A stretch of 64,000 nucleotides of DNA, from contig NC_091941.1 in NCBI RefSeq assembly GCF_041260155.1, positions 38,016,747 through 38,080,746 of the forward strand, in the 5' to 3' direction. Position numbers and translations under genes: made by a program. Below, one piece after another: positions 2,732 to 57,821 of the stretch. The stretch comes from Ptychodera flava (Eukaryota > Hemichordata > Enteropneusta > Ptychoderidae). The notes under the pieces were generated by a model. It made no database searches. It was not told the DNA's origin and saw only the letters and a list, made by a program, of their open reading frames with translations. How positions within the stretch are numbered: the stretch's first letter is position 1; each line of letters starts with the position of its first letter.

Positions 2732-2884
2732 CGTGAGTAAAACGACGTTTTACGTATCACAGTGGAAATAATGTCACATCCGTGAGTAAAGCGACGTTTT
2801 ACATATCACAGTGGAAATAATGTCACATCCGTGAGTAAAACGACGTTTTACATATCACAGTGGAAATAATGTCACATCCGTGAG
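2732..2884 (+). repeat. 49-bp tandem repeat, three copies
   Basis: CGTGAGTAAA begins at 2732, 2781 and 2830, and CGTGAGG follows at 2879, so the period is exactly 49 bp. The three units are almost identical. Each contains the 15-bp mirror TAAAACGACGTTTTA (7-bp arms around a central A), with one arm changed in unit 2. Confidence 0.85.
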
Positions 2885-16145: not shown

Positions 16146-16334
16146 ATGGGAAGTACTTGTACAGTAGCAGCAAAGGGTTCTAGCGTCGCCCCGGCAGTAG
16201 ACAAAAACAGCGAGGAAAAACTACACACTGTAACTGATGAGCCATATCTGTCGCTACCCTCTCCCTCCTCAAATGAGAGTAAAACGTCGATTGACGACCA
16301 CAATTTTAATTTGATCGACCAAATGGTACTAGAT
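16146..16334 (+). CDS. KY-like: KY-like gene exon 1
   Basis: Sixty-three codons from ATG to a GTAAGT donor, phase 0. An upstream in-frame non-ATG extension exists, but this ATG gives the MGSTC acylation-type start. The rest is Ser/Thr-rich and probably disordered. Confidence 0.65.
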
Positions 16335-19300
16335 GTAAGTATGCAATGGATTGCGTTATCATATGTACCTGAGCTTTAGCGACCGTGTCCCTCTAATAGA
16401 ATCCACAGTTATACCCAGAATCGGTGAGAATTATTAAATTTGTTTATGACCGATGGAACATTCATAAATTTATGTGTTCATGGAAAGTCATCGATAAGTT
16501 CGATGATTAAACAGTAATACGAACGTGTTTGTGTCACATTTCTTGACAAACAATGGCCTAATTCGTTCTAATTCGCCCTGTACATCATACATACCTGGAA
16601 CCATTGCCTCATAATGCGGTATAGTATACTGAATGCTTTATCCATAAATGATACAAGTTGACACTTTTTTCGTAAGTGATTTTCACAGTTTGAAATTCAC
16701 GTAATCATTTTGATGCAGTGTATGATGGACACATTCATGCCTGCTGCTCCAGTTATTGTTGATCAAACTGGGCAACACTATGATATAATATTCTTCGAGC
16801 GCCTGTGTTCGACTCTCTGATATTTTCAATGTAGCACGTACCTACTAGCCACAACGTATAGGAGTATTACCGGTCAAACGCAGCACATGATAAGGCTGCG
16901 TTCACAAATAACGATTGGGGGGGGGGGGGCTGGAGGAATCGCGATTGAAATCTTTTTTTTTTCAGATCCCCCCACCCTCAATGCCCTAAAAATTTTCAAA
17001 TGCCCCTCTCTATATGATCAAAATTTTTCAAGTCCCCCCTAACTATCACAAGCACGCATATTTGTAAAGGATGTGCGCACAGACAAAATAAACACGTATT
17101 GCTCCATTCCGCTCGCAGATGTTCAACATTACCTGTTATTAGTACTTTGTAAAGTCATATTTCAAAGTTGATTCATTTTTAAATGCATCAGTGAACTTTT
17201 TGAAATTACAGTATCAGTCTATAAGCCAACTTGAGTTAATCCAAATCTGGCCAGATCAATTGCTCCTACCGAAGAGCACACAAAATGACGATCATGAGAG
17301 AGTATGCAAATTGTTAATTCTGGCTAATTGCCATATTGTAAAACGTATATGAATTAGATGCTACTCAAAATTGAAAATATTGGAAGGTTAAAATATTCCA
17401 TCAAATAAATGTTTTAATCTCTGAAATTTTGGGTGTAATAATGGCAAATTTGTTTAAAAAATAAATAATTCCATTTGGTCACATATTTTTTCATTTAGTC
17501 TTTACTGTTCAAAGTTTTACTTTTGTATTATTTTATGACGTGAATATGAAACTTTAGAAAATTGAACATGGTGACCCCATCTTTTTTCTTTAATATTATC
17601 CTCATATGCCAGAAAGTCTCCTGGTCTTCCATGTGTTGTTCTCTGGCCTAATCTAGTGTACAAGTATGTTTCACTGTCATGAGCGTCATTTGACACAAAC
17701 TCTTCTTCAACTACCATGTACATCAGAGTCAGAGCTATCTCTATCACTGCTCAGGTATGCAGTGACAGTAACACTGCAGTAGCAGGGCAGTATCTGATAG
17801 TGACACTACCCGTAGGCAGTAGCTGTATTAACTTTGACAATTTTGACAATATTTTTGTTCAGTTTATACAGCTGCGTTCTTGTTCTACTCCCTACAGCAT
17901 GTTGAACTGTCCAGTATTCAGCTTGCTATCACAGCCTGTGTATGTGTATCATGCATTTGTATCGCTGACAACTGACTGCCACTGATTAAATTATCACCTT
18001 TTACATATTTATATATACAGGCTTTGTCGACAAACTAATGTTGTGTGTTTGATTATGCTGTAGAGAGACAGCAAGAAACTGCAGTTGATATCACATATTA
18101 ATTGCAAAAATCATCAACAGTTGCAGCTTCTGCCCTGTTACTAAGCGCGTTTGGTTTTTTATGACAAATCACACGTTTAGATTTTTTCGAGATAAAAGTC
18201 ATGAAATGTGACAAAATGCTTCTAGATTTTGTTAAATGATTACTAATATTATAACAATTAGATGACACGAAAATGGTATTCATTTTCATTGAATTACCTA
18301 CAAAAACTTGGAATTGGAAAATGTAAAACATAAAAGGGAACCAAAAAATTTTCAAGTTCCCCCCCCCCTTTACAGGCAGAGCAAAATTTTCAAACCCCCC
18401 TCTACTACCCCAAAAATTTTCGAATCCCCCATGAATTCCTCCAGCCCCCCTAACCATTTTTTGTGAACGCAGCCTAAATGTGGTTTTAACAAGCACAAAT
18501 ACACGCATATGCTCTCCCGAAAGTTTGCCTGCCTAAGGCATATGTACACACATCTATGGGGCGCATAGACGCAGAGCGGAATAGACCACAGGGGACTGTG
18601 CTGCAGTTCAAGTTCTCTGCGATTTCGATTGCTGCGCAAGTTTTATATCCGCACAATACGGTTAGGCATTTATGGAATACACATTTTAAAATTTACTTGT
18701 TTACAAATTGCCAATTCAACCATTGAGGTTTCGAAATAAGGCTAGTTACACAGCCATCACTCTTATACGTACATTTTCTTTTAAGTCGAAAATCGACAAG
18801 TTCACCTGCTACACGGATCTAGTTACCTACTTCGTGGAAAAGGGAAGAACAGATGTTGAACGTTTGAGGGCATTCTTCGTCTGGATTTCTACAAATATTG
18901 CCCAGGAAGTTGATTTCTACGAGACATTCCGTATGCAGGAATGGATGTACTATCAGCTGCAAGATAACGACGACGACGACGACATTTCCCTCAATGAAAA
19001 GGATAAAAGTGACGTCATAGATTTCTTACATAATCACCGTCGTCCGAAGGAACCTACACGATTCTTGGACGACGATGGACCAAAACGATTCAAACCACCC
19101 GGTCCCGATGACATCGACGTTGCAGAAGTTTACAATTCTGGCATGGCGTACAGTTCTGGCTACGCTGCTCTGTTCAAGGCAATGTGCAGGTGAGTTTCCT
19201 CTCTACAAATTCAACTCTGTTCAAGGCAATGTGCAGGTGAGTTTCCTCTCTACAAATTCAGCTCTGTCCAAGGCAATGTGCAGGTGAGTTTCTTCTCTAC

Positions 19301-22300
19301 AAATTCAGCTCTGTCCAAGGCAATGTGCAGGTGAGTTTCCTCTCTACAAATTCAGCTCTGTCCAAGGCAATGTGCAGGTGAGTTTCCTCTCTACAAATTC
19401 AGCTCTGTTCAAGGCAATGTGCAGGTGAGTTTCCTCTCTACAAATTCAGCTCTGTTCAAGGCAATGTGCAGGTGAGTTTCCTCTCTACAAATTCAGCAGT
19501 TTTTGATTCCCTTCATGCAATCTCAAATTGTGCATAGTTTTATATTCTTCTTTTAACTTAACAAATATCGTTTCATAACTTATTTGACTAGACAACTATC
19601 GACATGTTGAACTCGGCATGAGGCTGCCGTTCAGGTGATTGCAAGTATTTGTTGCAAATCCTATTTTTAATCTAAAAATAAACCATTCTATTAAAGGTTT
19701 TACAAAAAAAAAGAGAAAAAAAAACGGGAAAAGTTAAGGGACAATTACCGTAAAGTTTGATGATATTTTAATTTATTTTAACTCCAGAAAACAATTATAT
19801 TTCTTATTCTTCTCCTCTAGAATGCTGAAATACAAATTATCAGCTTGGCACGCACAACGCTTGGTGTACAGAATGCGATGTTTTTTCTCGTTGTGCAATG
19901 CTTTTTCTCGTTGAAAAAATTGCCTAGCATAATTCTGTTTTTAGCGATAACATGGTACATCACACACATACAGACACCAATTTTAGAAAGAAAAATGATA
20001 CTTATTTTATTAACGAAACAAGAACAGCGGAAAAGATTCCGAAATTTCAGCCATCGGATCTTTTTAGCGTTCGACAATTGTCTTCATATTATAATTGCAA
20101 AGTAGTCCCCACCTACTAGTTTCTCCATCTCCCCGCTGCCAACACCATCAAATGTTTTCCTTCGTATCAGGGGAGTTCCCCACTGCCAACACCCCGCCAC
20201 TTGCTGTTATCCTGTCCTGGCTAAATCCCACCTGGTTTAGCCTTTTCCCTCTGCATGCTTTATATCGCCGCTTTTTGCCCTCTCCTTCTGCATAATAATT
20301 CCCAAACTGCTTTCGTGATCATGTACTAAAAAATTATATACTTGCATTGTACATTTTATATACTTACATTGTACATTTTATGAGTATTAAACAACCCTTG
20401 CGAGAACATAGCGAAAACGCTATAAGAACTATAATTCTTTGCGTACTGTTCTGTACCAACAGTTTTGGTGGCATCGATTGTATTATAATAAGTGGATACA
20501 TCATGGACGCCGACTTTCGTCCGGGCATGACAATTCCTAAGGAATGGCTGGGCGACCATTATTGGAATGCAGTTAATGTAGACGATCAGTGGTTGTTTGT
20601 TGATTGCTTCAAAGGTGCCGGCTATGTCAATTCCCGAGGTGGGTAAATAATTGTGATCAAATAACGATTACTTGAAATCAAAGGATTTCATCAAATACAG
20701 AGACATTTTCAAAATGCCCGACACACAATTTTCCAATGGCTTGTTGTTTTTACTCTTATTATAAGTCCACAAATGTAATGCGCAACGTGAGAAAATTTTG
20801 GAGAAATATGAGATAAATTGATTTTCTCGATGATTTTCACCGAAATGTTGATCCACTATACATTGTTATCTATGAGGAAACTATGAATAATTTGTTTTGA
20901 ATAGGTTATGGGGCAGGGTTGTTCCAGACAGAATATAGTGTCGTTTGCATCATATAGCCATCCTGATCATTAACAGTTTACTATTATATGTAACTTAACC
21001 ATACATGGGACGATTTACCTCATTCTACTCTGCTTTTACACAGGGGACTTTGAAGCTTGTTTTGAAGATCATTATTTCTTGGTCGATCCCAAGGTCTTTA
21101 TCAAGGACCACTTTCCATCCTGCCAAAGCTGGCAACTTCTACCAACTCCCATTACAAAAGAAGAGTTTGAGCGGCAACCAGTGATTGTTCCTGACATGTA
21201 CAAGTACCAACTGTCAATAGCTGAACCCAAAGAGGGCATTGTTGTGACATCGAACGACACAGGCATTGCTGAAGTTGTTTTGTCATTACCAGATTATGTA
21301 CCAAGTGATATTCTTGAGAGTGTTTTAGTGAAGAAGGACGATCCGGCAGTCACCGCTGTTAAAGCCTATTGGGCCAAAGTAGCAAAAGAACTGGAAGAAT
21401 TGGAAAATGAAAAGGATAGTGTAAAACCACCGCCATGGCTTTTTAAAGACGAGGCCGAAGAATACAAACGTAGGGGCAGTTTTCGTCCAAGTAGTAAAAG
21501 AGGAACAGATATTTCTGAGCAGGAGGTCAAAGGTGAGCTGTTAGCATTATTGGAAGAAACTGAGGACGGTGATGAAAGAAACATAGACCAACAGTCAACC
21601 ACCTCGTCAAACCAGACTACCAGGTCATGGACATCCAGAACAACTAAGCCTCTATCGAAAGCTGGAACAGGATCCCAGTTAATAAACGTGCCAAATTCGA
21701 AATCAGATGGCCAAGTTAGCGCAGTTCCATCAAAGGAGGTACACCTACCACAGGGCAGCCTGCAAGATAGCGAACCCGGGACGGTAGAAGAAACATCTGA
21801 CATGCAAATTAATCGCGACTTCGAATTCTCCTGGAAATTGCACAGAGTCGACTGGATCGACCAAAACAAAGTGGTAGAAAACCACGTGATGGTACAGAGA
21901 AATGAAGGTCAAGTCACATTCTACATTGTACCACCAAAACCAGGAGCTTACTACTTCACACTGTTCACTAGAATTCAGCTATCCCAAGATGAAAAGAAAG
22001 CTTTAACATTCGAACAGGGTGCGGCGGGTAACTCTGAAGAAGGTGAGGAAGATGATGATGAGGACAGTGACGATGATGTACAACCACTGGAGGGGACTCA
22101 CACGGTCCCGGACGACGTCAATGTTGAAGAAACGGAAAGTGTCGATGATGAAAGCTCAACAGAGTCGGACAGTGAGTCGGACAGTGAGACGGACGAGGAG
22201 GAAGAAGAGGAAGGTCCTAAACTCATCAAAGTAAACCCGACAAAACTGATGTTGAAAATGAGGGATAAGGAATTGAAACCTAAGATAGAACGGGAGCCGG

Positions 22301-23448
22301 AGAATGATGACGATAAAAAGAATGACCAGACAGCCGAACAACTTGAGAGGTCAGATGGCATTAAAAAGGGAAATAGAGCTACACAAGAGAGCGGAGAGAA
22401 TGGTCCAGAAATGCCACATCAAGCGAACACGAAGGATGAACTGGACGAGAGCGGCAGTACAGAACACACAGATCATGAAAACAAAAAGGTCGAAGAGGAT
22501 GCTGCTTATTTCTACGACTTAGAGATGGCAAAGATCAATGATCTACCGTCTTTGAAACCAATGGATCAAATAGTAGACCATCGTAAGGACACCAAGACAC
22601 AATTGGGAAAGAAAAAGGAAGAGACGGAAGTCCAAAAGAATTTGAAAGATCGAAAGGAGAAGAGAGAACGTTTCACGGAAATTGCGTCCTTCTATATCTT
22701 TAATGAAACCTGTGCAGAAAGCTATCTACCTCTACCAATATGCAGTGCAGATCTTTGGGGTCCTGGCCAACGACTGAAAGAATATGGTCTGGTAGCATTA
22801 TCACATCCATACGCTGTGATTCACCCTCTGAGAGGCGAAGTGGAGATCACTTTCAACATTGATCAGAGCATACAATATGCAAAGTATATGGAATTCTCCT
22901 ACAAGCTTCGATATTTGCATGGCGGTGATGAGAATATCTCAAGTCTACAGAAGTATGTCCTACAGGAAGCTGTGAGAGCCATTCTCAGGTTCAAGATTCG
23001 ATTTCCCAAGGCCGGTCCGTATAGTCTTACCATCTTCGCCATTGAAAACAGACCAAAATTGAACGAGAGTGAGGAAAGCCGACCGACTACTCAGGACGGG
23101 ACGAGAATTGCCAGTGCATCGGCTTCAACCAGCGCAAAGTCTGACACGAGTGACACAAGTGGGAGGAAGAAAGAGGTGGTTACACCGTCAGGTGTGGTCA
23201 TTAATTCAGCACCAACCAAGGCTAAAACAAAAACCAGGCTGTGCAAGTATCTGATTCTTTGCAGCGAGTCATACACACAGTGTACTCCTTTCGAAAATGC
23301 AGGGCCGAAGAAGGACAAGGGGACAAAGAAGAAGAAAAAGAAGAAGAAGAAAAAGAAGAAAAAGAAGCAAGCCAAAAAGGAGGAAGCAAAGGAAGGAGCT
23401 AAAAAGAAGAAGAGCGTAAAAACAAAGAAAGGTAATAAAAAGAAATGA
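16146..23448 (+). CDS. KY-like: KY/hillarin-type transglutaminase-like protein
   Basis: Four exons (16146-16334, 18741-19189, 20463-20638, 21044-23448) join in phases 0, 2 and 1 into one frame of 1072 residues ending in TGA. The transglutaminase-like core spans about residues 80-270 and shows VERLRAFFVWISTNI, SGYAALFKAMC, IDCIIISGY, GDHYWNAVNVDDQW and FVDCFKGAG in family order. Within it, His245 and Asp260 match the catalytic His and Asp, but the position expected for Cys is Ser201. About three Ig-like KY repeats follow, around residues 300-350, 540-610 and 830-950. They are separated by very acidic linkers, and the protein ends in a long lysine-rich tail. The N-terminus MGSTC fits N-myristoylation plus palmitoylation. 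The vertebrate KY protein acts in muscle and hillarin is cytoskeleton-associated; a structural role is inferred. The start of exon 2, or a missed small exon before it, is the least certain point. Confidence 0.85.
16894..18474. mobile_element. Harbinger-like non-autonomous element, copy 1
   Basis: The left end GGCTGCGTTCACAAA is repeated in reverse complement at the right end. Both ends are flanked by TAA (16891-16893 and 18475-18477), a TWA-type 3-bp target duplication. A long G run follows the left end, and C runs and 'aaaattttcaaa' motifs mark both interiors. Inner segments CTGGAGGAAT and ATTCCTCCAG also pair. The element lies in intron 1 of the KY-like gene. No transposase frame is visible. 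Confidence 0.75.
18741..19189 (+). CDS. KY-like: KY-like gene exon 2
   Basis: The exon follows ATAAG and ends GTGCAG before GTGAGT, leaving phase 2. It encodes the start of the transglutaminase-like core, an Asp-rich insertion (DNDDDDD) and the segment with Ser201 where the catalytic Cys is expected. Its last 22 bases are the template of the tandem repeat that follows. Confidence 0.75.
19168..19495 (+). repeat. 47-bp tandem repeat of a splice donor, seven copies
   Basis: Each unit holds the last 22 bases of exon 2 and the first 25 bases of the intron. GTGAGT donors sit at 19190, 19237, 19284, 19331, 19378, 19425 and 19472, exactly 47 bases apart, with only a few substitutions between copies. 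The intron part ends in a pyrimidine stretch and TTCAG, so every unit also contains an acceptor-like site. Reading through the first donor meets TGA at once, so only the first donor preserves the protein. Confidence 0.95.
20463..20638 (+). CDS. KY-like: KY-like gene exon 3
   Basis: Between a CAACAG acceptor and a GTGGGT donor; enters in phase 2 and leaves in phase 1. It carries the His (GDHYWNAV) and Asp (WLFVDCF) of the predicted triad. A second GT four bases downstream would break the frame. Confidence 0.85.
21044..23448 (+). CDS. KY-like: KY-like gene exon 4
   Basis: A 2405-base terminal exon after TTTTACACAG. It starts RGDFEACFEDHYFLVDP and contains the Ig-like KY repeats, Glu/Asp-rich linkers (for example EGEEDDDEDSDDD) and a C-terminal tail with more than a dozen successive lysines encoded by AAG/AAA. 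TGA is at 23446-23448. Confidence 0.9.
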
Positions 23449-28672: not shown

Positions 28673-29899
28673 TTGGATGTCATCGGGAGTTTGGGCAGAC
28701 CTTACATGAAATACATTCTTTACAATTAAAACGTTTTCTGCCCGGTGGTTCCTGAGTTGCATCATCTTCACCAAATTTCACTTTTTTGTACCTCATTTGC
28801 ATATTTTTGACACAAACACCTTGATTTGAACAAATTCATATCTCCAACCTCGGATGCCCTTAAGTACCAAATATGAAGACAGTAAGTGTTGTACTTTTCA
28901 TGTTTTTGATATAGATGGACTAACAGACATACATACACACAGACGGCCATTTTTCCACTTTATAAGAATAAATGCCATTTGCATATATACATATGCTAAT
29001 ACGGGAGCTACAAATGTACTATTACATGTAAAGAATGTATTTTGTGCAAGCTAATCTAGACCTAGCTGTGCGATCTTACAGTGGTTTGTGTTGACCCATG
29101 GGCATTAGGCGAACTAGACATATTAAAATCGAGGTGTAGCCAAACACTGTCAAGTGTAATATCAACTAGGCGGTAATATGAGTCGATCATAAAGGAATCA
29201 ACTCTACAAAAGTTGAGACATTGTCTAGCAGGAGGTCAAATGTAGTTAAAACATCACCTGATCCACACACACCACATCTGCTATGCTAGGCTACATAGCG
29301 GCAATCCGTGTTGTAATCTGTTTTTACATAGTTCCATTGCAATAATGTTTGGTGTATTGAGAAAATAACTGCTTATTTATTAACGATATATGTGTGTATG
29401 TGTTTGTCAGCTCAAAAATTTGTAAATGCGAAAAAGCCTTATACAGCAAGTGATATACCTAGACAGTTAGCCAGCTGTGTGTGGATAGGCTATTGTCTGA
29501 CCTTCTGACAATGTTTCAACTTTTGTAAGGTTGATTTCTTTGTAATTGACTGATCCCTTGATGATAGTTATGCACAGTGTTGACAACATTAGACTGTATG
29601 TCATTGGGTCAATGCAAACCACTGCATAATGTATTCATGCAGACCTTTAGTGTAATTAATGTAAAACAAGTCATTGACAATGACATAGTCCCCACTTGAA
29701 ATAGGGGAGTATTAGTCTTGATGGGGCAGGTAAATGTGGTCTTTAAGAAGTATCACTGGAGTGTATATGTTAAGATCTATGGGCACATAGGTCTATGTTG
29801 TTTTTCCCAATTTGAAACACATGAGGCATGTCTAAGTTATGGTTCTAAATCGGGAAAATAGATCAGACCTCTAGCTGTATTGGCCAGCCAAGAAATACA

Positions 29900-31170
29900 T
29901 ATGTGGATAATAAATGATGTCCAAGATGTGACATCTTAAGGTCTAATATCCTATCAAAATTGGAGGGTATAGAACTTGTGGTTACTGAGTTATGCATATA
30001 TATGTATAATCAAGGTAAAAAGTCATCGAGGTCACATGACATTTTGAAAAAAAAAATATATTGCTAATTAATCCCTATATGCCAAAAATCAGACATCTAG
30101 CTCGATTCGCTTGCCGAGAATTAGATATGTGCATAATCAATGAGGTAAAGTGTGTGTTGTCATAAGGTCGCCCATCCTACTAAATATAAAGGACATAGCA
30201 CTTGTGGTTACTTATTTATTGACAAAAACGTATATTTTAGGTAAAAGGTCATAGAGGTCACATGACATTTGATCAAAAAATTTCTATTCTATAGTTATCC
30301 CTATATACGAAAAATCAGACATCCAGCTCTATTGACTTGCTATGAATTAGATATGTGCATAATTAATGAGGTACAGTATGTGGCATCATAAGGTCTTCCA
30401 TCATACCAAATATGAAGGGTGTACCACTTGTGGTTAGTGACTTATGGACTAATATGTATATTTTAGGTCAAAGGTCATTGAGGTCATGTGACATCTTGTC
30501 AAAAAAATTATATTACTAAGTTATCCCTATATACCAAAAATCAGACCTCTAGCTCTATTGGCTTGCTCAAAATTAGATATCCATATAATTAATGAGGTAC
30601 AATATGTAGCGTCATAAGGTGTCCCAGCATACCATACATGAAGGGTGTAGCACTTGTGGTTACTGAGTTATGGACAAATATGTATATTTGAGGTCAAAGG
30701 TCACATGACAATTTGTCAAAAAAAATTGTATTGCTAAGTTATCCCTATATACCAAAATCAGACCTCTAGCTCTATTGGCTTGCTCAAAATTAGATATGCA
30801 CATAATTAATGAGGTAAAATATGTGGCGTCATAAGGTGTCCCATCATACCATTTATGAAGGTTGTAGCACTTGTGGTTACTGAGTTATGGACAAATATGT
30901 ATATTTGAGGTGAAAGGTCACCGAGGTCATGTGACTTTTTGTCAAAAAATTGTATTGCCAAGTTATCCCTATATACCAAAATCAGACCTCTAGCTCGATT
31001 GGCTTGCTCAAAATTAGATATGCACATAATTAATGAGGTACAATATGTGGCGTCATAAGGTGTCCCATCATACCATTTATGAAGGGTGTAGCACTTGTGG
31101 TTACTGAGTTATGGACAAATATGTATATTTGAGGTCAAAGGTCACCAAGGTCACGTGACATTTTGTCAAA
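29900..31170 (+). repeat. 225-bp tandem units carrying DR1 and E-box motifs
   Basis: Units share 'attagatatgcacataat', 'gtggcgtcataaggtgtcc', 'gcacttgtggttactgag' and 'aggtcaaaggtca', followed by 'aaggtcacgtgac'. Adjacent copies of 'tagatatgca' lie 224 bases apart. The clearest DR1-like site is 31132-31144 and the E-box CACGTG is at 31152-31157. Confidence 0.8.
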
Positions 31171-31312
31171 ATATCTGAGATATCATCTTGAATGGAGGGA
31201 CATGACCCAATCTATAAGCCCCCTGGACTTCATCCGTGGGCTAAAAACCGTATCACCGCATCCTTTTTGCTATATGAATACGATGAGAAACTAAATTTTT
31301 ATTTCACTTGGC

Positions 31313-31512
31313 CTTATACATGGGATTCTATGCAGAGCTGCCTTTAACATGGAGTCTATGGACTCCCTTATACATGGAGTCTATGGACTGCCTTATACAT
31401 GGGAGTCTATGGACTGCCTTATACATGGGAGTCTATGGACTGCCTTATGCATGGGAGTCTATGGACAGCCTTATACATGGGAGTCTATGGACAGCTGCCT
31501 TATACATGAGAA
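31313..31512 (+). repeat. 26-bp minisatellite (TATACATGGGAGTC unit)
   Basis: Seven or eight units of TTATACATGGGAGTCTATGG plus ACTGCC. The same minisatellite occurs in the same position of the copies at 46376 and 61054. Long frames rich in Trp, Tyr and Gly through it are artefacts. Confidence 0.9.
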
Positions 31513-31730
31513 TCTATGGAGGTGGAAACTACAAAGTCCTCTAATACGGCCAAATTTGATCGCATTGTGAAACAAATCGACGTGCATCTGTATGGGGTAG
31601 GGTACTATCCTTGTGCAAAGTTTGAAAGAAATTGACAAGGGCATGTCTGAGATATCTGTGTGAACGGACGAACTGACGGACGGACGGACGGACGGACATG
31701 ACCCAATCTATAAGTCCCCCCGGACGACTA

Positions 31731-43334: not shown

Positions 43335-46300
43335 CTTCTTTGGCATCGGGAAAATGACAGAAATATTTAAATCAAATGGCCAGGGCTTTGAACAAGTTTC
43401 TAGACTGACCTTCAACTATGAGTGTGACAGTCTTCTTTTGAACTGTACCAACATTATTGACTCCAGTACAAATATAGTCACCGGCATCACTGCGGGATAC
43501 TGACTGGATTTCTAGGGAATTGTCTCCTGACTGGGAGAATCTTGGAATAGTACCAGGAAGAAGTATATTTCCCTTATGCCACTCAATTGTTGGTTTTGGT
43601 ATTCCAGTAGCATGACACTCAAGGGTGACCGATTTGCCAACAGATGTTGTAACCACAGATTGACCCCCTCTGATCTCAACAGGAACTGTTCAAATGAAAA
43701 TTTCATAAATAAGCGATGTCATGAGAAAGTAAATATAAACTTTACAGTCAACATATCTATATTCCTACAACCGTGGAAATAGAAATTATGTAAATTTAAA
43801 AGTCTTATGATAATATAAATATGACTTAAAATTCAAACGGCAAATAAAAAAGGTAAAACTTGTCCAATCACCCCATCAAACGAACCATGCAAGAAGAGTT
43901 GAATATATGAATATGTAAATGACAGATTTTGAATCGTGGTACTAAGCAAACAATTAAATTCTCTCTTGCCACGCTTTAATTCCCTAATTTCTGTAACATC
44001 TAAGTTTCTAGACTGGAATGCTGTGTGAAGTCTGGCAAAGTAGTAGTGCTGTCATGCTGTCTGATTGTTGTTTCTTTGTAAAGGTCTTGCCACCATTGTG
44101 AAAATAACAGGTGAGTTCTTAAGTCTTGTTTCAATAATTCTGTAGCAATAGTTCTTCATTAGCATATAAATTTGGAATACGATATGCACAGGTTTCTTGT
44201 ATCATGTGATGAAGATAAAAGCGATGCTGGTGTGAAAGGAATGGACATAAAAACCCCAGATTACGTAGCTGCTTGAAACTGCATTACTTGTTTTGTTTAA
44301 AATCAATACACATGAATCTCAAAAAGTCGCTGTCTCCAAAGATTTTTGTTGTTGTCAGATTTGCTATGAGGGATCTACCATGGTAAACACAGTAGAATTA
44401 AAACACCTGTGGGTGTTACAAACCTACGTCAACAGATTGTAAATAAGGTGTGAATAATAGGTTGCCCTAGGTGATCAGGAATTCATAGAATCTAGTCACC
44501 TTCACTGAAAATATGTGCAACGTTGATACAATTTGATCACTGTCTGGCTAAAAAACTAATATGAATAAAACACATTCTCTAAAAGTTTTGTAAGAACTTA
44601 CCAAGAACAGTGACAAATACTCTGTAGACTGCAGGCTGTCCAAGACCATTGAATGCTGTACAAGCATAGACTCCAGCATCCTGGGAACTGATGTCATATA
44701 TGGTCAACACTCCATCACTGCTTTCAACAAAATGCTCCTTGCCAAGTTGATCGATAGTCCTGGCGCCCATTCTCCAGGTTACTCTGGGTTCAGGCACACC
44801 TGAGGCTGCACAGCTCAAACGGATAGTGTTACCAGAATCTACTGTGATATCAGAAGGCCCTGGAATGATAGACGCTGGGCTGGCATCTGCGAAAATAAGG
44901 GAAAATAGCACAACACTGAAAAAATCAAAGTGAGACTTGAGTGGACACCGTGGGTCATTGGCTCGCTCAAAATTAGATATGCACATAATTAATGAGGTAC
45001 AATATGTGGCGTCATAAGGTGTCCCATCATACCAAATATGAAGGGTGTAGCACTTGTGGTTACTGAGTTTTGGACAAATATGTATATTTGAGGTCAAAGG
45101 TCACCAAGGTCACTTGACATTTTGTCGAAAAAATAGTATTGCTAAGTTATCCCTATATACCAAAAATCAGACCTCTAGCTCTATTGGCTCGCTCGAAATT
45201 AGATATGTGCATAATTAATGAGGTAAAATATGTGGCGTCATAAGATGTCCCTTCATACCAAATATGAAGGGTGTAGCACTTGTGGTTAGTGAGTTATGGA
45301 CAAATATGTATATTTGAGGTCAAAGGTCACTGAGGTCACATGACATTATGTCAAAAAAATTGTATTGCTAAGTTATCCCTATATACCAAAAATCAGACCT
45401 CTAGCTCTATTGGCTCGCTCGAAATTAGATATGTGCATAATTAATGAGGTAAAATATGTGGCGTCATAAGATGTCCCTTCATACCAAATATGAAGGGTGT
45501 AGCACTTGTGGTTAGTGAGTTATGGACAAATATGTATATTTGAGGTCAAAGGTCACTGAGGTCACATGACATTTTGTCAAAAAAATTGTATTGCTAAGTT
45601 ATCCCTATATACCAAAAATCAGACCTCTAGCTCTATTGGCTCGCTCAAAATTAGATATGCACATAATTAATGAGGTACAATATGTGGCGTCATAAGGTGT
45701 CCCATCATACCAAATATGAAGAGCATAGCACTTGTGGTTACTGAGTTATGGACAAATATGTATATTTTAGGTCAAAGGTAATTAAGGTCACGTGACATTT
45801 TGTCAGATATTGGCTCGCTCAAAATTAGATATGCACATAATTAATGAGGAACAATATGTGGCGTCATAAGGTGTCCAATCATACCAAATATGAAGGGTGT
45901 AGCATTAGTGTTTACTGAGTTACGGACAAATATGTATATTTGAGGTCAAAGGTCACCAAGGTCACATGACATTTTGTCAAAAAAATTGTATTGCTAAGTT
46001 ATCCATATATACCAAAAATCTGACCTCTAGCTCTATTGGCTTGCTCAAAATTAGATATGCACATAATTAATGAGGTACAATATGTGGAGGCATAGGGTGT
46101 CCCATCATATCATATATGAAAGGTTTAGCACTTGTGGTTACTGAGTTATGGACAAATATGTATATTCGAGGTCAAAGGTCACCAAGGTCACGTGACATTT
46201 TGTCAAAGCGTCTGAGATATCTGCGTGAACGGATGGACTCACATGGATGGACTAACGGACTGACATGACCCAATCTATGAGCCCCCTGGACTTTATTTGT

Positions 46301-49300
46301 GGGGACTAAAAACTGTGTCACTGCATCCTTTTTGCAATATGAATACGATGAGAAACTAAATTTTTATTTTTCTTGGCCTCATACATGGGAGTCTATGGAC
46401 TGCCTTATATTATACATGGGAGTCTATGGACTGCCTTATACATGGGAGTCTATGGACTTCCTTATACATGGGAGTCTATGGACTGCCTTATACATGGGAG
46501 TCTATGGACTGCCTTATACATGGGAGTCTATGGACTGCCTTATACATGGGAGTCTATGGAGGTGAAAACTAAAAAGTCCTCTTACACGGCCAAATTTGAT
46601 CGCATTGTGAAACAAATCGACGTGCATCTGTATGAGGTAGAGTACTATCCTTGTACCAAGTTTGAATGAAATTGCTCCAGGCGTCTCTGAGATATCTGCA
46701 TGAACGGACGGACGGACGGACATGACCAAACCTATAAGTCCCCGCGGACGGTGTCCGTGGGGACTAATTTAGTATGTGTACAGTCACATCAAATTTGGTT
46801 CAATATTTCTTGAGATATAGCCCTATGGTAAAAAAGTCATAAAATATGCAAATAAGCAATTAATTAATAAGCCACACCCACCAAAATCTAATCAGATCTA
46901 AGTCTCATCATGATAATACCAAATATCAAATTGCATGACATTGGACCTAAGGGTTCTTAAGTTATGAGTGGAACAAAATCTGTCTACGGACGGACAGACG
47001 GACACACACACAGACATTGTGGCGACAAAGGACACCTTTGGTGCTTCGCACCACGGTGTCCAAAAACTGCAATAAAAATAATGCAAGAGTTTCAAATTGA
47101 AAATTACACATGCTAATAAGATAATTGAATGAAACTTATGACAATATTTTTGAAATAACTGTCAAAGAGGCATAGTTTTGCATGACATAAAGATTATCCA
47201 AGGAAGACAATTTAATTTTGACTAGCGGCCGATAGAGCTCTGAGATACATGTGTCGATGAAGAAGGTGGAAATCTTTGAAAGCTCATTTCAAGATGGCCT
47301 GACCAAAACTGGCAAAAACAGCTGCAAAAATACACAATTAAGGATTTAATGATAATTTGAACTTGACAGATGAAGATCATTCCATCACTGCTTTCAATAG
47401 GTTAAAGGTAAAAACCTCTTACTCAGATGTGTGGGCTGTTTCAGTTACTGCCTGCACATTTGCAGGATTTCCTGCTTTTCTTACCTCATTTGCATATTTT
47501 TGACACTGACATGTTCATTTGAACAACGCCACATCTCAACCCCTGCATCTACCTGTACACCAAATACTGAGATGGTAGCTTTGGCGGTATGGGAGCCTTT
47601 GCGTGTAACGGACATACATCAACACATACATACCCACATACATACAGACATACAGACGCCATCGACTCACCATCAGTGTTCGCGGTGACTTTTTTCTCCT
47701 CGCGTACGGCATACGCATTAGTCTGCTAAAATTGCGTAATGGCTGGATTTGAGTGCGTAATTTCACTTCCGCACTCGATTGATGAAAAAACTGACTGCAA
47801 AACACAATGTGCCGTTGAATAAACCTACACTACATATTCGGATTGTACGATGTAACATTATTTTAATGAAAACAGTTCAACGAACAACTTGAACAATGTT
47901 GAAACGTAACAGCGAAGGGTATACATGCAACCGTCACAACACATCGGGCAACCCAAAAGTTAGAGTTATGGCAGCTTATCCAGACGGTTTCTGGACGTTT
48001 CGGCAACAAGTCGTTTCGGCCAAAGACGTTTCGGCCTTCCAATTTCAGGCCCCAAGTCCGAGTCGTTTCGGCACTGCAACCCAAGACGTTTCGACACCGC
48101 TGAAGGCTACCTGTGGGAACTAGTGCTGGAGGGTAATGTTACAAATCAAAGTACTAAAAAGTATAGTGTCAACTAACATTCACGTACATGCTTAAGACCG
48201 TAAGAAAAAACTTCATATCATTTTCAAATCTGTGACACAAGTTTATCGATATCAATAGCCGCCGACACGGAAAAGTTTGAAAGCGGTGAGGAAACAGCAC
48301 GGCAAAATTCACACAAAATGCACATAAAGTACTGGTCAGAACGCAAAGGTCACGCTTACGAATATGACGGATCAGTCAATTACTAAATAGTTTGAAAAAA
48401 AATCGAAACACAGACGCCGAAACGTCTTGGGATGCGGTGCCGAAGTGACTTGGGACCGGAAATTGAGAGGCCGAAACGACTTGGGCCGAAACGACTTGGT
48501 GCCTGAACGACCAGTTACCATCCAGACACTTCTGCAGTGTTCAAAAGTTATCGGGATTCCGACGAGTTCTACCAATGAATCATTTTTTTCACGGACTCGT
48601 AGAGCAAAGTTGAAAGAAATTAAAAACAGATTTGTCTGCTTCGACGCCATGCTGCATGTGTGCTTGATCAAAATTTGGGAACAGCGAGACGCGATGATCG
48701 TGCATGGTTGGCATTTATAAAATTTGTCGCAACATTTCTGTCAATCACTCACTTTCAGAAACTATCGCTCACCTGCAAATTAGCAACGTAATTCATAGGC
48801 ACAGCTGACATGATAACGTGCCTAACGTGATAACGTGTGGACTACGATGCCGATTTTTCAGACAACGCCCAGAGAATTCGAAACTTTCCACACAAAATGA
48901 GTGATTGACAGAAATGTGTTGCAACAAATTTCGTCTGGTTGTCGCCTAAGCTCAGTCGTGGTGAGTGCTTTCGGTGTTATCCTTTGCGTATAGAAAACGC
49001 ATAACGATGAAAAAAATGCGTAGAGAGTCAATTTCAATGCGTAAATACGCACTAATTTTGCGTAAACGCGAACTCTGACCATATAAGCTCTTTTTGGTAT
49101 TTATATAAATACCAAATATGAGCTAAAAATGGCAAAAATTGCCTTACATATACAAATTTGCATTTTTCTGCAAAATTTGAACAACTCTGAAAGAGGTAAT
49201 CCCTGGGGACATATCCCAAATATCAAAGCTGTCTGACCTGCATTTTTGAAGAAGAAGATTTTTAAAGAATTATTGACCAAAAATGACAGAATCGCCTTTA

Positions 49301-52300
49301 GAATACAAATTTGTACCACGATTGGTACAAATCTAACTGTCATCCCAAGTAAACTGCATATAAAATTTCACAGTAATCGGACATCTGGTTTTAGAGAAGG
49401 CAATTGTTGACGGACGATGGACAAATGGACAAACGACGACTGACAATCAGCCTATTTGATAAGCTCAGCATCACTGACAGCCGAGCTAACAAGGGTGAAC
49501 AGTAGTACCACCTGTTTTAGTAACCAGTTTGGCAGTTAACGTTTTTAATATTCAGCTATCTCTTGATGGCCTGTATCTCAAAACTAATGAAATACTCTAA
49601 TGGAAATACATAAATTCTGATGAGTGATTTAATTTTACTGCAACAGTTGAGATATTTCGTTGGAGCATTGGGAAGGGAAATAAGGCTACGGTACATGAGA
49701 AAGGAGTGATCATAGTTTTAAAAGGTTTGGCTAAACCACTCTACCTGGACAACCAAGCATGTTTTCATCTTTTGCAAAGGTAATGCCATCATTGCAACAT
49801 CCATATTCACTGATGACACAACCAAAAAGAACCTCTCTGTCTCTGTCCTCATCCTCCTGTTCCTCTTCAGACTCAAAACCTGGACAGCCATCATTAGTCC
49901 ATCCAGATCTAGGAATATCACTACCAGGACAGCATCCATATGTAGTTATTCGACAGTCAACACCCAGCTGTGGGGTTTCCTCTCTGTCTACTTCTTCTTC
50001 GACAACAGGCGGGCATCCACTATAACCTCTCTCTGTAGCTGGTGTTATGCCATCTGGACAGCATCCATATGGAGTTGTTCGACAGTCACCACCAAGCACT
50101 GGGGCTCCTTCTCTGTCTACTTCTTCTTCCACAACAGGTGGACATCCACTGTAACCCCTTTCTGTAGCTGGTGTTATGCCATCTGGACAGCATCCATATG
50201 GAGTTGTTCGACAGTCACCACCAAGCACTGGGGCTCCTTCTCTGTCTACTTCTTCTTCGACAACAGGTGGGCATCCACTATAACCTCTCTCTGTAGCTGG
50301 TGTTATGCCATCTGGACAGCATCCATATGGAGTTGTTCGACAGTCACCACCAAGCACTGGGGCTCCTTCTCTTTCTACTTCTTCTTCCACAATAGGTGGG
50401 CATCCACTGTAACCCCTTTCTGTAGCTGGTGTAATGCCATCTGGACAGCATCCATAACGACTTCTGCGGCAGTCTTCACGACCTTGTTCTTGCTCGTCTT
50501 CAGAGTCAGACTCTGGTTCCTGTCTATCAACTTCATTGAAACTTGGCTGCGATGTTCCTGTGAGGAAAATGCATAACTAGATCACATATTCTAAAATTCA
50601 ATTATAGGGCAGTGGAAACTATCATATGCATATCATTATTCCATGCAGAATCATTTGGTCCTCTTCATTAATTAAGTCTGTGATAACTTTGATACAGATG
50701 GCACTCAATGGCCAAGAATGAGTTCCATGGTGGTGAAAACATAAAACCAATGTAGGCCGTCATCCTAATTACAAAAGGTCATTAAATGAGTCAATTAGGA
50801 ATTAATCGACAGGATGTTGCCAAACATTTTTGCATACTATCCTAACACTAACAGATTATCACTGGTACCATATTTAATAAACTTTGATGCAGTATTTACA
50901 CACTATGAGATCAACATCTGTACCAAGTTTCATCAAATTTGAAGCAGTATTTGTGGATATATCACTCGAATTAGGAAAGTTCATTACATATGCAATGACA
51001 AATTAATTAATATGACACTGATAAATGTCTCTTTCACTGTTAAAGCAATGTGAGCTTAACATCTGTACCAAGTTTCATGAAATTTAATGCAGTATTTATT
51101 GACATAGCAGCCTTATTACGAAACTTCAATAATTGACATAATACTGCTACATGACGTGAAACAAATTGACGTGCATATGTATGAAATAGCTCAATGTCCT
51201 TGTACCAACTTTGAATGATACTGGTGGAAATGTGTCTGAGTTATGGCTCTGTACATGAGAAAATCATGACAAAATCGCCGCCCATAGCGATATTTGATCT
51301 TACTGTTTAAAAAATCAACACGTATATGTATGACATAAGTTAATGTCCATGTACCAACTTTGAATAAAATCAGTTGAGACTTGCCAGAGTTATGGCTCAT
51401 GACATGCTAAAAACCATAACAAATTTGCCACCATGTGGCCATATTGGATCATATTGTGAAACAAATAGACCTACATATGTATAACATAAGTCAATGCCCT
51501 TGTACCAACTTTGAATAAAATTGCTTGATACATGTCTGAGTTACGGCTCCATACATGAAAAAATCTGATACTATCCAATATGGCGGCCATATTGGATAGT
51601 ATCACAAAACAAATCAATGTGCATATGTATGACATAGGTCAATGTCCTTGTACCAAGTTTGAATAAAATCGGTCGAGACGTGCCTGAGTTATGGCTAAGG
51701 ACATGAAAAAATTGTAACAAAATGGCTGCCATGTGACCATATTGGATCATATCATGAAACAAATTGACGTGCATGTGTATGACATAGGTTAATGTCCTTG
51801 TACCAACTTTGAATAAAATCGGTTGAGATATGCCTAAGTTATGGCTCTGTACATGGAAAAATCGTAACAATGGCCGTAAGGCAGTCATATTGAATTGTAT
51901 CACAAAACAAATTCACGTGCATATGTATGACATAGGTCAATGTCCTTGTACCAATTTTGAATAAAATCAGTTGAAACATGTCTGAGTTATGGCTCTGTAC
52001 ATGAAAAAATCGTAATAAAATGGCCACATGGCGGCCATATTGGATTGTATCACAAAACAAATCAATGTGCATATGTATGACATATGAAGTAATCCTTGTA
52101 CCAAGTTTGAATGAAATCGCTCCAGGCATCTCTGAGATATCTGCGTGAACGGACGGACGGACGGACATGACCAAACCTACAAGTCCCCCCCCGGACGGTG
52201 TCTGTGGGGACTAAAAACTGAAAATAAAGATTTAATCAGTATAAATATTGCCATGAAATACACATATTTTGTATTTAAGTAATGGTTATTAATCCATCTC

Positions 52301-55300: not shown

Positions 55301-57821
55301 TCCGCAAAATCCATATCAGGGCCGTAAAGGTTTTATCATATACCTTATTATTACTGAATATCCAGGAAAATTATTTATTTTTTCAATCTCGTATGGCTAG
55401 ATTGAGCGGTTTTTTCATTTTTATGGCGAAATTAGACCTGACATCGTCATTCCATCGGCGAAAGCCCAAGCCAAATCACTTTGCGCATTGATATAAGTAT
55501 GATGTAATCTATTTACATGTAAACAAACTAATTCTCAATCACAGCTGTCACTCGCAAATGTACAAACAAAAAAGGGAAGGAGACCTTTGTTAAAGTTACA
55601 CAAATCCGAACGTTTAATAAACTTTTCAAATATGAATATTAAGTGCTGACAGATTAAAATTTTCTAATGATTGAAACGACTGAATGAGCACGGCAACGTA
55701 CAATCGAAATAGACTTGAAGTTGAAACACAAGAACGCAACGACACGGACTTAGTCAACGTGCAACGTCAGCACAAACATCAAAATTCAAAAAACAAATGC
55801 AACAGTCAACAGACTGAATCACTGACTATCACTGTCAGATTCGATGACAAATGGACGGCTTCTCTTGACTTTCGGTGCGAGCGTGATGTTAAATGTACAG
55901 TTATTCATTATCGTATGTGCACAGGCGAGCGCCTTTTCTGTCTTCGGTTGCAATGGGGAGAGTGGTCTTTTCATGATCGGTGAATTTGCGATGGGTTTCG
56001 CCGGGCACTCCGTCTTCACGCCTGTCACCGTGGCAGGCTCAGAACTGTACCTCTGCTGATTGGCGACATCTGTCAGAATACCTGAAATACGGCGGTGGTC
56101 ATCGATGGAGACGGTGTCATAATGCTGGAGACTCGACACATTTTTATGGCCAGTGATCTTGATGATCTGCTTAGGTGGAACGCCGGCTTTGCTTAGGGTT
56201 TGCACTGTTGTTTTGCGAACGGAGTGGTTTGTTTTGCATCCAGCAAATGACATAGATTTTGCAGCCCGTTGCATGAAAGATCCAAGCTTGTTTTTACCCA
56301 TCGGTCGGGGATAAAACCACAGCAAGGAGTTGATCTTATGAGACGGGATAGGTTGAAGGTAAAACGGACTATCATCGTTGCACGCGTCAATGGGTCTCCG
56401 ATTGATGAACTCGCGGTAGATCGAAATCGGGTCACGGTCACTTCCGGGAGCTTCAAACACGCGAGGGGGGACGGAGCGACAATCCATATACTTTCCGTCT
56501 CTAGTCTTCGTGTCACGCTCGCGAAATTCTAGGAACAAGTGTCCGGAGTTGTCTCTCTGTAGTTTTATATCGCCGAAGGTCAGTTTTTTATGTTCGTCAC
56601 GACCGCGGAGTCCAAAGTTCTTCGTAAAGATATACCACAGCGGGAAGATGATAGTTTCACCGTCCTTCTTTCCAAGAACGCCAGACTTCCACATTGCATT
56701 TTCTTCCTTGGGAGAAATTGCCTCAGATGCTTGAGGCTTTCCGCCCATCCCACGCTTCTTGAGTTGCATCCGCTTTGCCTTCAGTGCTTCGTTAGCTATG
56801 TCGAATTGCTTATCATTTAGAGAAACGCCGTATCGCTTTTCCGAAAAATACCTCTCAATGCTGTGTTTCACTGTCGAGATTGAATCAGGCTCGTAGTCGC
56901 TCCCATTGTCTTTCTTCATATTGATGAAAAACGCCGCTAGGTATTCATTCAGGGCAGTTGCTGGGATGTTAGACAGCTCACGATGGTCATCATACCGAGT
57001 CTCGATAAATCGTCGTACTTTGTTTACATCTCTCTCGGTCGTTCTTACAGTACTGACCTTTCACTGAGATTTTATGAAATTGTTCACGGAATCCATGTCT
57101 TCGTTTCCTATGGCGGATGCGCAGGTGTTTGTCGTTTCAGAGCCATCATCGATATCACCGAACAAGATACTGTTTAGATTTTCTGCGGGAATTTCCTGCA
57201 ACCACTGCATTATTTCATCAGCTTGTGCCATGGTGTTTTGATCAGCACTGAGAACTGAAGAACGCAGACGACAATTTTTGAATCTCGCGCTGATTTGTTT
57301 ACACGTTGGGAAGTGTACAAATAGCAACGCGCATAGCAACCACACTGAAAGTAGTTCAGGACTGTGCGTGAATGTCCATATTTAGACAAAGTGTGCCGGT
57401 CCGTGATACGGCAACTTATTACACACCTGTCAGAGCGCCTTTTCCCATAGGTTTACATGGGTACGTGAATCTAGGTATATGATAATACCTGATAAAGTGA
57501 GAGCAGAGGTCCTTTGGCAATACAGTGTATTCTTATGGCAGGAGACTGTTTCAGTATGGCTCATACTTACAGAGTCCCCTATAAACACAGACATTCATCA
57601 ATAGCCAGCATAGAAAACTGCCATGCCTATAAGGGACTGGTCAGTTTCTTCGGCCTGGGGGGGGGCCGGTGGATTATTTTTTGCCGACGTCAAAAAGTGG
57701 CTGACCCCCCCTATTCCAAATTTTGAAAACAGGGTGACCCCCCTATTCCAAATTTCTAAAACAGGGTGACCCCCCCCCCCCCCCCCCCCCCCGGCGTGAC
57801 AAGGTAAAACAAAAGATGGAC

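What the first reader, a model, noticed from the sequence alone, without database searches (positions are those of the whole stretch)
19168..19495. A splice donor copied seven times in tandem
Exon 2 of the KY-like gene ends in a 47-bp unit made of 22 exonic and 25 intronic bases, repeated seven times at an exact 47-bp period. Each unit has an intact GTGAGT donor and an acceptor-like TTCAG. Since 47 is not a multiple of 3 and the first donor is followed at once by TGA, downstream donors would truncate the protein. The array could compete for U1, buffer donor mutations or allow regulated nonsense isoforms.
Basis: partly seen in the sequence, partly recalled or inferred. Interest (0 to 1): 0.75.

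Follow-up and report, generated by a model that had tools for sequence, protein, structure and literature searches.

The report
Splice-donor minisatellite in an acorn worm
In one gene of an acorn worm, a 47-letter stretch spanning the end of an exon and the start of the next intron has been copied seven times in a row; it looks like a recent tandem-repeat expansion of a kind already described in amphioxus, and it offers a natural test of how cells choose among identical splice sites.

Summary
Seven 47-bp units (22 exonic + 25 intronic bases) lie at 19168-19496. All seven donors are identical CAG|GTGAGT; six of seven units end in TTCAG. The gene is KY-like: four coding exons, 1057 aa. The window is almost certainly Ptychodera flava (Hemichordata): ten papilin exons match that species at 87-100%. 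Only direct use of donor 1 keeps the reading frame and rejoins the transglutaminase core; donors 2-7 all run into the TGA of the first intronic copy. Units differ at three columns only, so the array looks young. Tandem arrays cover 16% of the window, so overlap with a splice site is not beyond chance. Arrays over exon-intron boundaries are known in amphioxus as 'mirages', with splicing reported as normal. I file this as a mirage-type minisatellite in a hemichordate; the papers listed by my searches showed no earlier case there. U1 competition, buffering or poison isoforms have no support from sequence, but are not excluded; work on paired donors in human cells even leans towards the last donor. 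New detail: two units can form an in-frame 69-nt cassette exon. The P. flava Iso-Seq reads described in PMC11175523 would show which donor is used.

The parts
16146..16334 (+). Coding exon 1 of the KY-like gene (63 codons, phase 0, donor GAT|GTAAGT)
   Evidence: ATG start and MGSTCTVA resemble the start of the Saccoglossus kowalevskii homologue P0092 (MGTTCTVA)
18786..19189 (+). Coding exon 2; ends in the first, frame-keeping donor CAG|GTGAGT
   Evidence: tblastn of P0092 ends at 19187, 50.8% identity; Xenopus KY residue 185 ends at 19187
19168..19496 (+). The array: seven 47-bp units, each 22 exonic-type + 25 intronic-type bases
19168..19214 (+). [quoted passage not shown] it ends TTCAA
19190..19195 (+). 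Donor 1 (GTGAGT), the only one whose direct use keeps the frame; TGA stop at 19191-19193
19237..19477 (+). Donors 2-7 (GTGAGT at 19237, 19284, 19331, 19378, 19425, 19472), identical to donor 1
19190..20462 (+). Intron 2 as spliced from donor 1 (1273 bp, phase 2), holding the rest of the array
20463..20638 (+). Coding exon 3, acceptor CCAACAG|TTTTGG
   Evidence: P0092 match 20473-20640, 55% identity; Xenopus KY residue 186 falls on the codon at 20461-20463
21044..23448 (+). Coding exon 4, to the stop codon; holds the KY Ig-like domain matches
   Evidence: Pfam PF23265; P0092 match 21043-23301

Best explanation
The array is a young minisatellite of the 'mirage' type. A 47-bp segment straddling the exon 2/intron 2 boundary was duplicated, perhaps by mispairing at a 2-bp GC shared by its two ends, and then grew to seven copies by slippage or unequal crossing-over. 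Unit 1 holds the original coding sequence and donor; units 2-7 lie in the intron. The functional mRNA is made from donor 1. Copies 2-7 are passengers whose occasional use would give unstable or truncated messages. SHOWN: the array, its near-identity, the open gene when donor 1 is used, truncation from donors 2-7. INFERRED: that donor 1 is the one mostly used, the duplication mechanism, and neutrality.
For: Unit divergence is 0-3 of 47 bases, with three variable columns in all. Joining at donor 1 gives 1057 aa with one terminal stop and reconstitutes Transglut_core (32.8 bits, cutoff 23), which the exon 2 frame alone reaches only at 16 bits and the exon 3 frame alone not at all. In 3 of 3 homologues aligned, C and S flank the junction with no gap. 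The array ends share the two bases GC (a 2-bp match is weak evidence, as chance gives it often). Background: 36 merged arrays of period 10 or more cover 16.3% of the window; 1 of 26 exon edges is covered against 4.2 expected by random shift. [quoted passage not shown] a passage of PMC3902484 says the same of Adh and TnC and suggests it for PGBD5.
Against: No transcript was seen, so use of donor 1 is inferred. Passages on competing donors in human systems lean the other way: in ER-alpha exon 1 two donors of equal score 33 nt apart lead to normal use of the intron-proximal one (PMC6002489), which here would be donor 7 and give a stop. All seven donors tie as the strongest U1 matches in the gene (-12.2 kcal/mol), so sequence strength does not favour donor 1. 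The amphioxus globin paper itself notes that the copies could act as cryptic sites and give aberrant transcripts. No P. flava KY protein was listed by two protein searches.
Confidence: 0.78

Rival explanations
1. The array damages the gene. U1 binds all seven donors, the intron-proximal donor 7 wins, most messages carry the TGA and are degraded; the allele is weak or the gene is on its way out.
For: Seven identical donors tie as the best U1 matches of 378 GT sites in the gene. The reported 35-nt U1 footprint (23 exonic + 12 intronic, quoted in PMC6002489) is below the 47-nt spacing, so all could be occupied at once. No P. flava KY protein was listed, although P. flava papilin was.
Against: The other exons are open and intact: 1057 codons with one terminal stop. 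Amphioxus mirages reportedly splice normally. Absence from a protein search may be a matter of annotation or of the search: one search also missed the S. kowalevskii homologue P0092, which is within its length range.
Confidence: 0.12
2. A regulated poison switch: choice between donor 1 and donors 2-7 sets the amount of KY-like protein through nonsense-mediated decay.
For: 6 of 6 downstream donors give the same premature stop, and a later intron exists in the model, so decay would be expected.
Against: Nothing found shows selection for the copies; folding is no better than shuffles (z -0.31, 40 of 100 shuffles at least as stable). One extra donor would suffice for a switch.
Confidence: 0.05
3. 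Exon birth: acceptor-like TTCAG ends and downstream donors splice two units in as an in-frame 69-nt cassette exon, adding 23 residues that repeat the motif ALFKAMCS (or ALSKAMCS).
For: 4 of 50 donor/acceptor/donor routes stay open to 1017 aa of the exon 2-4 frame, all from donor 1 and all with a 69-nt cassette. Pyrimidine content before the unit acceptors (0.76) equals that of exons 2 and 4. The one longer product tested still passes the Transglut_core cutoff (26.7 bits). An intron-gain model from mirages is published (PMC3087553).
Against: No RNA evidence. The domain match of the longer product is weaker and shorter than without the cassette (26.7 against 32.8 bits; profile 58-108 against 35-108). 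46 of 50 routes are out of frame or stopped. Exon definition of so short an exon beside identical donors is doubtful.
Confidence: 0.05
4. Assembly artefact: a smaller true copy number expanded by the assembler.
For: No reads are available here. The P. flava assembly in PMC11175523 used PacBio reads with MARVEL and Pilon polishing (that the window is from it is an assumption), and the amphioxus globin authors found a mirage wrongly assembled in the draft genome.
Against: Units carry ordered private variants (C in units 3-5, T in unit 3, A in unit 1), which plain stuttering would not make; 329 bp lies well within a long read.
Confidence: 0.05

Closest known systems
[quoted passage not shown] Adh3, TnC, globins BflGb6 and BflGb9, PGBD5), as described in passages of PMC3087553 and PMC3902484
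   Same: Tandem copies spanning an exon-intron boundary, with AG/GT signals in many copies; unit length within the reported range (Adh3 10-72 bp, globins 150-160 bp); similar units within an array (81-100% in BflGb6)
   Different: Here in a hemichordate KY-like gene, on the donor side, with seven identical donors. Length polymorphism and normal splicing are reported there and could not be tested here
Intron gain by tandem genomic duplication (AGGT duplication model; passages of the review PMC3443670)
   Same: Duplication of a segment holding AG|GT, so each copy brings splice signals
   Different: There a segment of exon is duplicated and a new intron arises; here the copies lie at an existing boundary and no new intron is shown
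Competing alternative 5' splice sites (DOK7 intron 4, passages of PMC5585400; ER-alpha exon 1, passages of PMC6002489)
   Same: Several donors compete and the choice decides between full-length and altered product
   Different: There two donors 11 or 33 nt apart; here seven identical ones at 47-nt steps

Membership tests
Mirage-type minisatellite | Tandem repeat unit spans an exon-intron boundary | tested here: met
   Each unit is 22 exonic-type + 25 intronic-type bases; boundary at 19189/19190
Mirage-type minisatellite | Copies carry AG/GT splice signals (many, not all, in the amphioxus cases) | tested here: met
   CAG|GTGAGT in 7 of 7; TTCAG in 6 of 7
Mirage-type minisatellite | Unit length in the published range | tested here: met
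   47 bp; 10-72 bp in Adh3 as quoted in PMC3087553
Mirage-type minisatellite | Normal mRNA splicing in spite of the copies | not testable with these tools
   No RNA reads at hand; donor 1 is favoured only by frame and homology
Mirage-type minisatellite | Copy-number polymorphism or somatic instability | not testable with these tools
   One haplotype; no genome held for the window
Mirage-type minisatellite | Host group: the passages seen report it from amphioxus (where it has been seen, not how it is built) | tested here: not met
   Window is Ptychodera flava or very close, Hemichordata. The passages define the term by structure, so I take this as a range extension and not as a failed defining feature
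Intron gain by tandem duplication | A new intron is spliced out of the duplicated segment | not testable with these tools
   An in-frame 69-nt cassette is possible but no transcript was seen
Poison-exon type regulation (AS-NMD) | Alternative site use introduces a premature stop | tested here: met
   6 of 6 downstream donors
Poison-exon type regulation (AS-NMD) | Conservation or regulation of the alternative site | not tested
   No other acorn-worm DNA of the locus was available; the near-identity of units speaks for youth, not for old conservation

The most novel reading that the evidence does not exclude
A 'self-healing' array. Every unit has CAG|GTGAGT, so an exon wrongly extended to any of donors 2-7 still holds donor 1 and still ends in CAG (6 of 6 extensions). 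A second splice from donor 1 to the end of the extension would then restore exactly the normal mRNA; splicing donor 1 to any later CAG|GTGAGT would likewise regenerate the same donor. This could explain why mirages are tolerated at all. Against it: these CAGs have a poor pyrimidine tract (0.47 against 0.59-0.76 for the three acceptors of the gene model), a rival TTCAG lies 22 nt upstream of 5 of the 6, and the shortest extensions (47 and 94 nt) would make very short introns.
Probability: 0.03. Interest if true: 0.8.

Novelty: new member of a known kind. Interest (0 to 1): 0.38.

Why it matters
If the array is real and donor 1 is used, it extends boundary-spanning minisatellites from cephalochordates to hemichordates and makes a clean natural experiment: seven identical strong donors at equal steps, with only the first giving protein by direct use. 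The share of reads per donor would test the tendency, seen in two-site systems, for an intron-proximal site of equal strength to win. It also gives a concrete substrate (a 69-nt in-frame cassette) for the published proposal that such arrays seed new exons and introns.

Tried and rejected
Selection on donor copies: 0 changes in 63 donor bases looks striking, but with three variable columns of 47 chance gives this 52% of the time; rejected as evidence. RNA structure hiding some donors: the nine donor bases are mostly paired in all seven units (mean unpaired probability 0.05-0.12), but the array folds no better than shuffles (z -0.31; three smaller pieces z -0.83, 0.13 and 0.06) and donor 1 does not stand out; rejected. 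Beyond-chance targeting of a splice site by the array: 1 of 26 exon edges covered against 4.2 expected (the 20 papilin edges are approximate tblastn ends, and the KY start and stop were not counted); rejected.

Species: an amphioxus was considered because of the mirage papers, and dropped when papilin exons matched Ptychodera flava. A first protein search gave only two distant KY homologues and missed P0092, which the third search found, so these searches are not exhaustive. The recombinase search gave only a hint (90% to a P. flava protein over 33% of the query; 85% over 186 residues).

Literature: searches (10 of 10 used). (hemichordate, minisatellite, splice site; any two) counted 164 papers and listed 20; none of the 20 listings was about a boundary array in a hemichordate; the other 144 were not seen. 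I make no wider claim of absence. Papers seen in passages only: PMC3087553, PMC3902484, PMC5585400, PMC6002489, PMC8724738, PMC3443670, PMC11175523; no paper was read whole. Not held and not read: the paper sought as the source of the term 'mirage' (by a DOI recalled from memory, which may be wrong), Hodson 2012, Hicks 2010.
Full report
WHAT IS THERE. Tandem Repeats Finder gives one array at 19167-19497, period 47, 7.0 copies, no indels, score 627; the best score in 200 dinucleotide shuffles of the surrounding 4 kb was 56. The majority unit is CTCTGTTCAAGGCAATGTGCAG followed by GTGAGTTTCCTCTCTACAAATTCAG, with three variable columns: C for T at unit position 7 in units 3-5, T for C at position 32 in unit 3, and A for G at position 47 in unit 1. 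So 7 of 7 donors are identical, and 6 of 7 units keep the acceptor-like TTCAG.

WHICH GENE, WHICH ANIMAL. Exons 16146-16334, 18786-19189, 20463-20638 and 21044-23448 join to 1057 codons with one terminal stop. Exon 4 holds KY Ig-like domain matches (PF23265, 2.5e-32). The joined exons 2-4 (first 286 residues given) match Transglut_core (9.1e-08, 32.8 bits against a cutoff of 23). A Saccoglossus kowalevskii protein (P0092) matches exons 2, 3 and 4 in order at 51, 55 and 35% identity. Downstream on the minus strand lies a papilin-like gene. For ten of its exons the best match of the Ptychodera flava papilin-like isoform X2 (P0089) has 87-100% identity, including 271 of 271 residues over 50558-49746. 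The window is therefore P. flava or an animal hardly distinct from it; P. flava is a hemichordate.

WHICH DONOR IS THE REAL ONE. Donor 1 (19189/19190, phase 2) joins to 20463 and keeps the frame. With any of donors 2-7 used directly the frame meets TGA at 19191-19193 after 135 residues of the exon-2 frame (6 of 6). tblastn of Xenopus KY puts residue 185 at 19187 and residue 186 at 20461. In the alignment of the window protein with three homologues, C and S flank the junction without a gap in 4 of 4 rows. The Pfam transglutaminase domain spans the junction; the exon 2 frame alone scores 16 bits, below cutoff, and the exon 3 frame alone nothing. So donor 1 is taken as the ancestral, protein-making site. 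This is inference from homology and frame; no RNA was seen.

HOW IT AROSE. Units differ by 0-3 of 47 bases, which means a young array. The ends of the original segment share two bases, GC; that would allow a microhomology-mediated first duplication but is weak evidence. Growth by slippage or unequal crossing-over is the usual next step (inference). The window is rich in such events: 36 merged arrays with period of at least 10 bp cover 16.3% of it. One of 26 exon edges (6 of the KY gene, 20 approximate ones of papilin) lies in an array, against 4.2 under random shift, and at least one would be hit in 96% of shifts. An array over a splice site is thus not surprising here; if anything exon edges are hit less than expected.

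WHAT IT MAY DO. The U1 footprint quoted in PMC6002489 (23 exonic + 12 intronic nt, passage) is shorter than the 47-nt step, so seven U1 particles could sit side by side. In that paper two donors of equal score lead to normal use of the intron-proximal one; passages of PMC5585400 show that SRSF1 bound upstream can suppress the intron-distal site. Both would push towards donor 7 and a stop. Against this stands the direct precedent: PMC3087553 (passages) says that Adh3 data and globin RT-PCR suggest no interference with regular splicing, while noting that the copies could serve as cryptic sites; PMC3902484 (passage) says that Adh and TnC mirages do not generate aberrant mRNAs and suggests the same for PGBD5. 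Which rule holds here is open; I weigh the precedent and the intact gene more.

Splicing donor 1 to the end of unit 2, 3, 4 or 5 and leaving from the second donor after that gives a 69-nt cassette that keeps the frame to 1017 aa of the exon 2-4 frame (4 of 50 routes). It would add SSVQGNVQVSFLSTNSALFKAMC (2 of the 4 routes) or a variant with ALSKAMC (the other 2). The first form still passes the Transglut_core cutoff, but with a weaker and shorter match (26.7 against 32.8 bits). This is the kind of event that the globin paper proposes for intron gain.

WHAT WAS NOT FOUND. No sign of selection on the donor copies, no structure beyond shuffles, and no P. flava KY protein in two protein searches covering about 547-2680 aa, although the P. 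flava papilin came up in the second. Those searches are not exhaustive: the first missed P0092. The absence fits an annotation gap, a limit of the search, or a locus whose transcripts do not look coding; I cannot tell which.

COMPARED WITH WHAT IS KNOWN. The structure meets the three features of amphioxus mirages that can be tested on sequence: a repeat over an exon-intron boundary, AG/GT in the copies, unit length in range. Length polymorphism and normal splicing could not be tested. I file it as a new member of that kind, outside the cephalochordates. One search showed no hemichordate case among the 20 papers listed of 164.

VERDICT. A real, young, boundary-spanning minisatellite, most likely neutral, with donor 1 making the protein. 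It is modestly interesting because it makes donor choice among seven identical sites directly testable with reads that are reported to exist (16-stage RNA-seq and Iso-Seq of P. flava).

Noticed in passing
window 19120-19190 (protein AYSSGYAALFKAMC): At the position of the transglutaminase-type cysteine (FCTGY in Xenopus KY) both the window protein and S. kowalevskii P0092 have serine (YSSGY), so this hemichordate KY-like protein may lack the usual active-site cysteine (alignment; the active-site role is recalled).
   Followed up: partly
window 16146-23448: No P. flava KY protein was listed in two protein searches although P. flava papilin, from the same window, was in one; the S. kowalevskii homologue is marked LOW QUALITY PROTEIN by its source.
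   Followed up: no
window 49927-50456 (- strand gene): A coding tandem repeat of 129 bp (43 codons, CCPDGIT motif) inside one papilin exon, about four copies, identical at protein level in the deposited P. flava protein.
   Followed up: partly
window 29862-31171, 44957-46205, 59124-60899; and 31311-31520, 46376-46560, 61054-61259: Three loci carry arrays of about 226 bp with similar consensus, each followed by a 26-bp array of the same consensus (GCCTTATACATGGGAGTCTATGGACT), as if a composite element with internal satellites moved as one.
   Followed up: no
window 55822-57381 (- strand): A DUF3504/tyrosine-recombinase reading frame (Crypton-like is recalled) with a single stop codon between its two open parts; a P. 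flava KIAA1958-like protein is 90% identical over a third of it.
   Followed up: partly
window 2732-2884: A 49-bp, 3.1-copy array whose units contain CGTGAGT; I recognised no gene around it.
   Followed up: no
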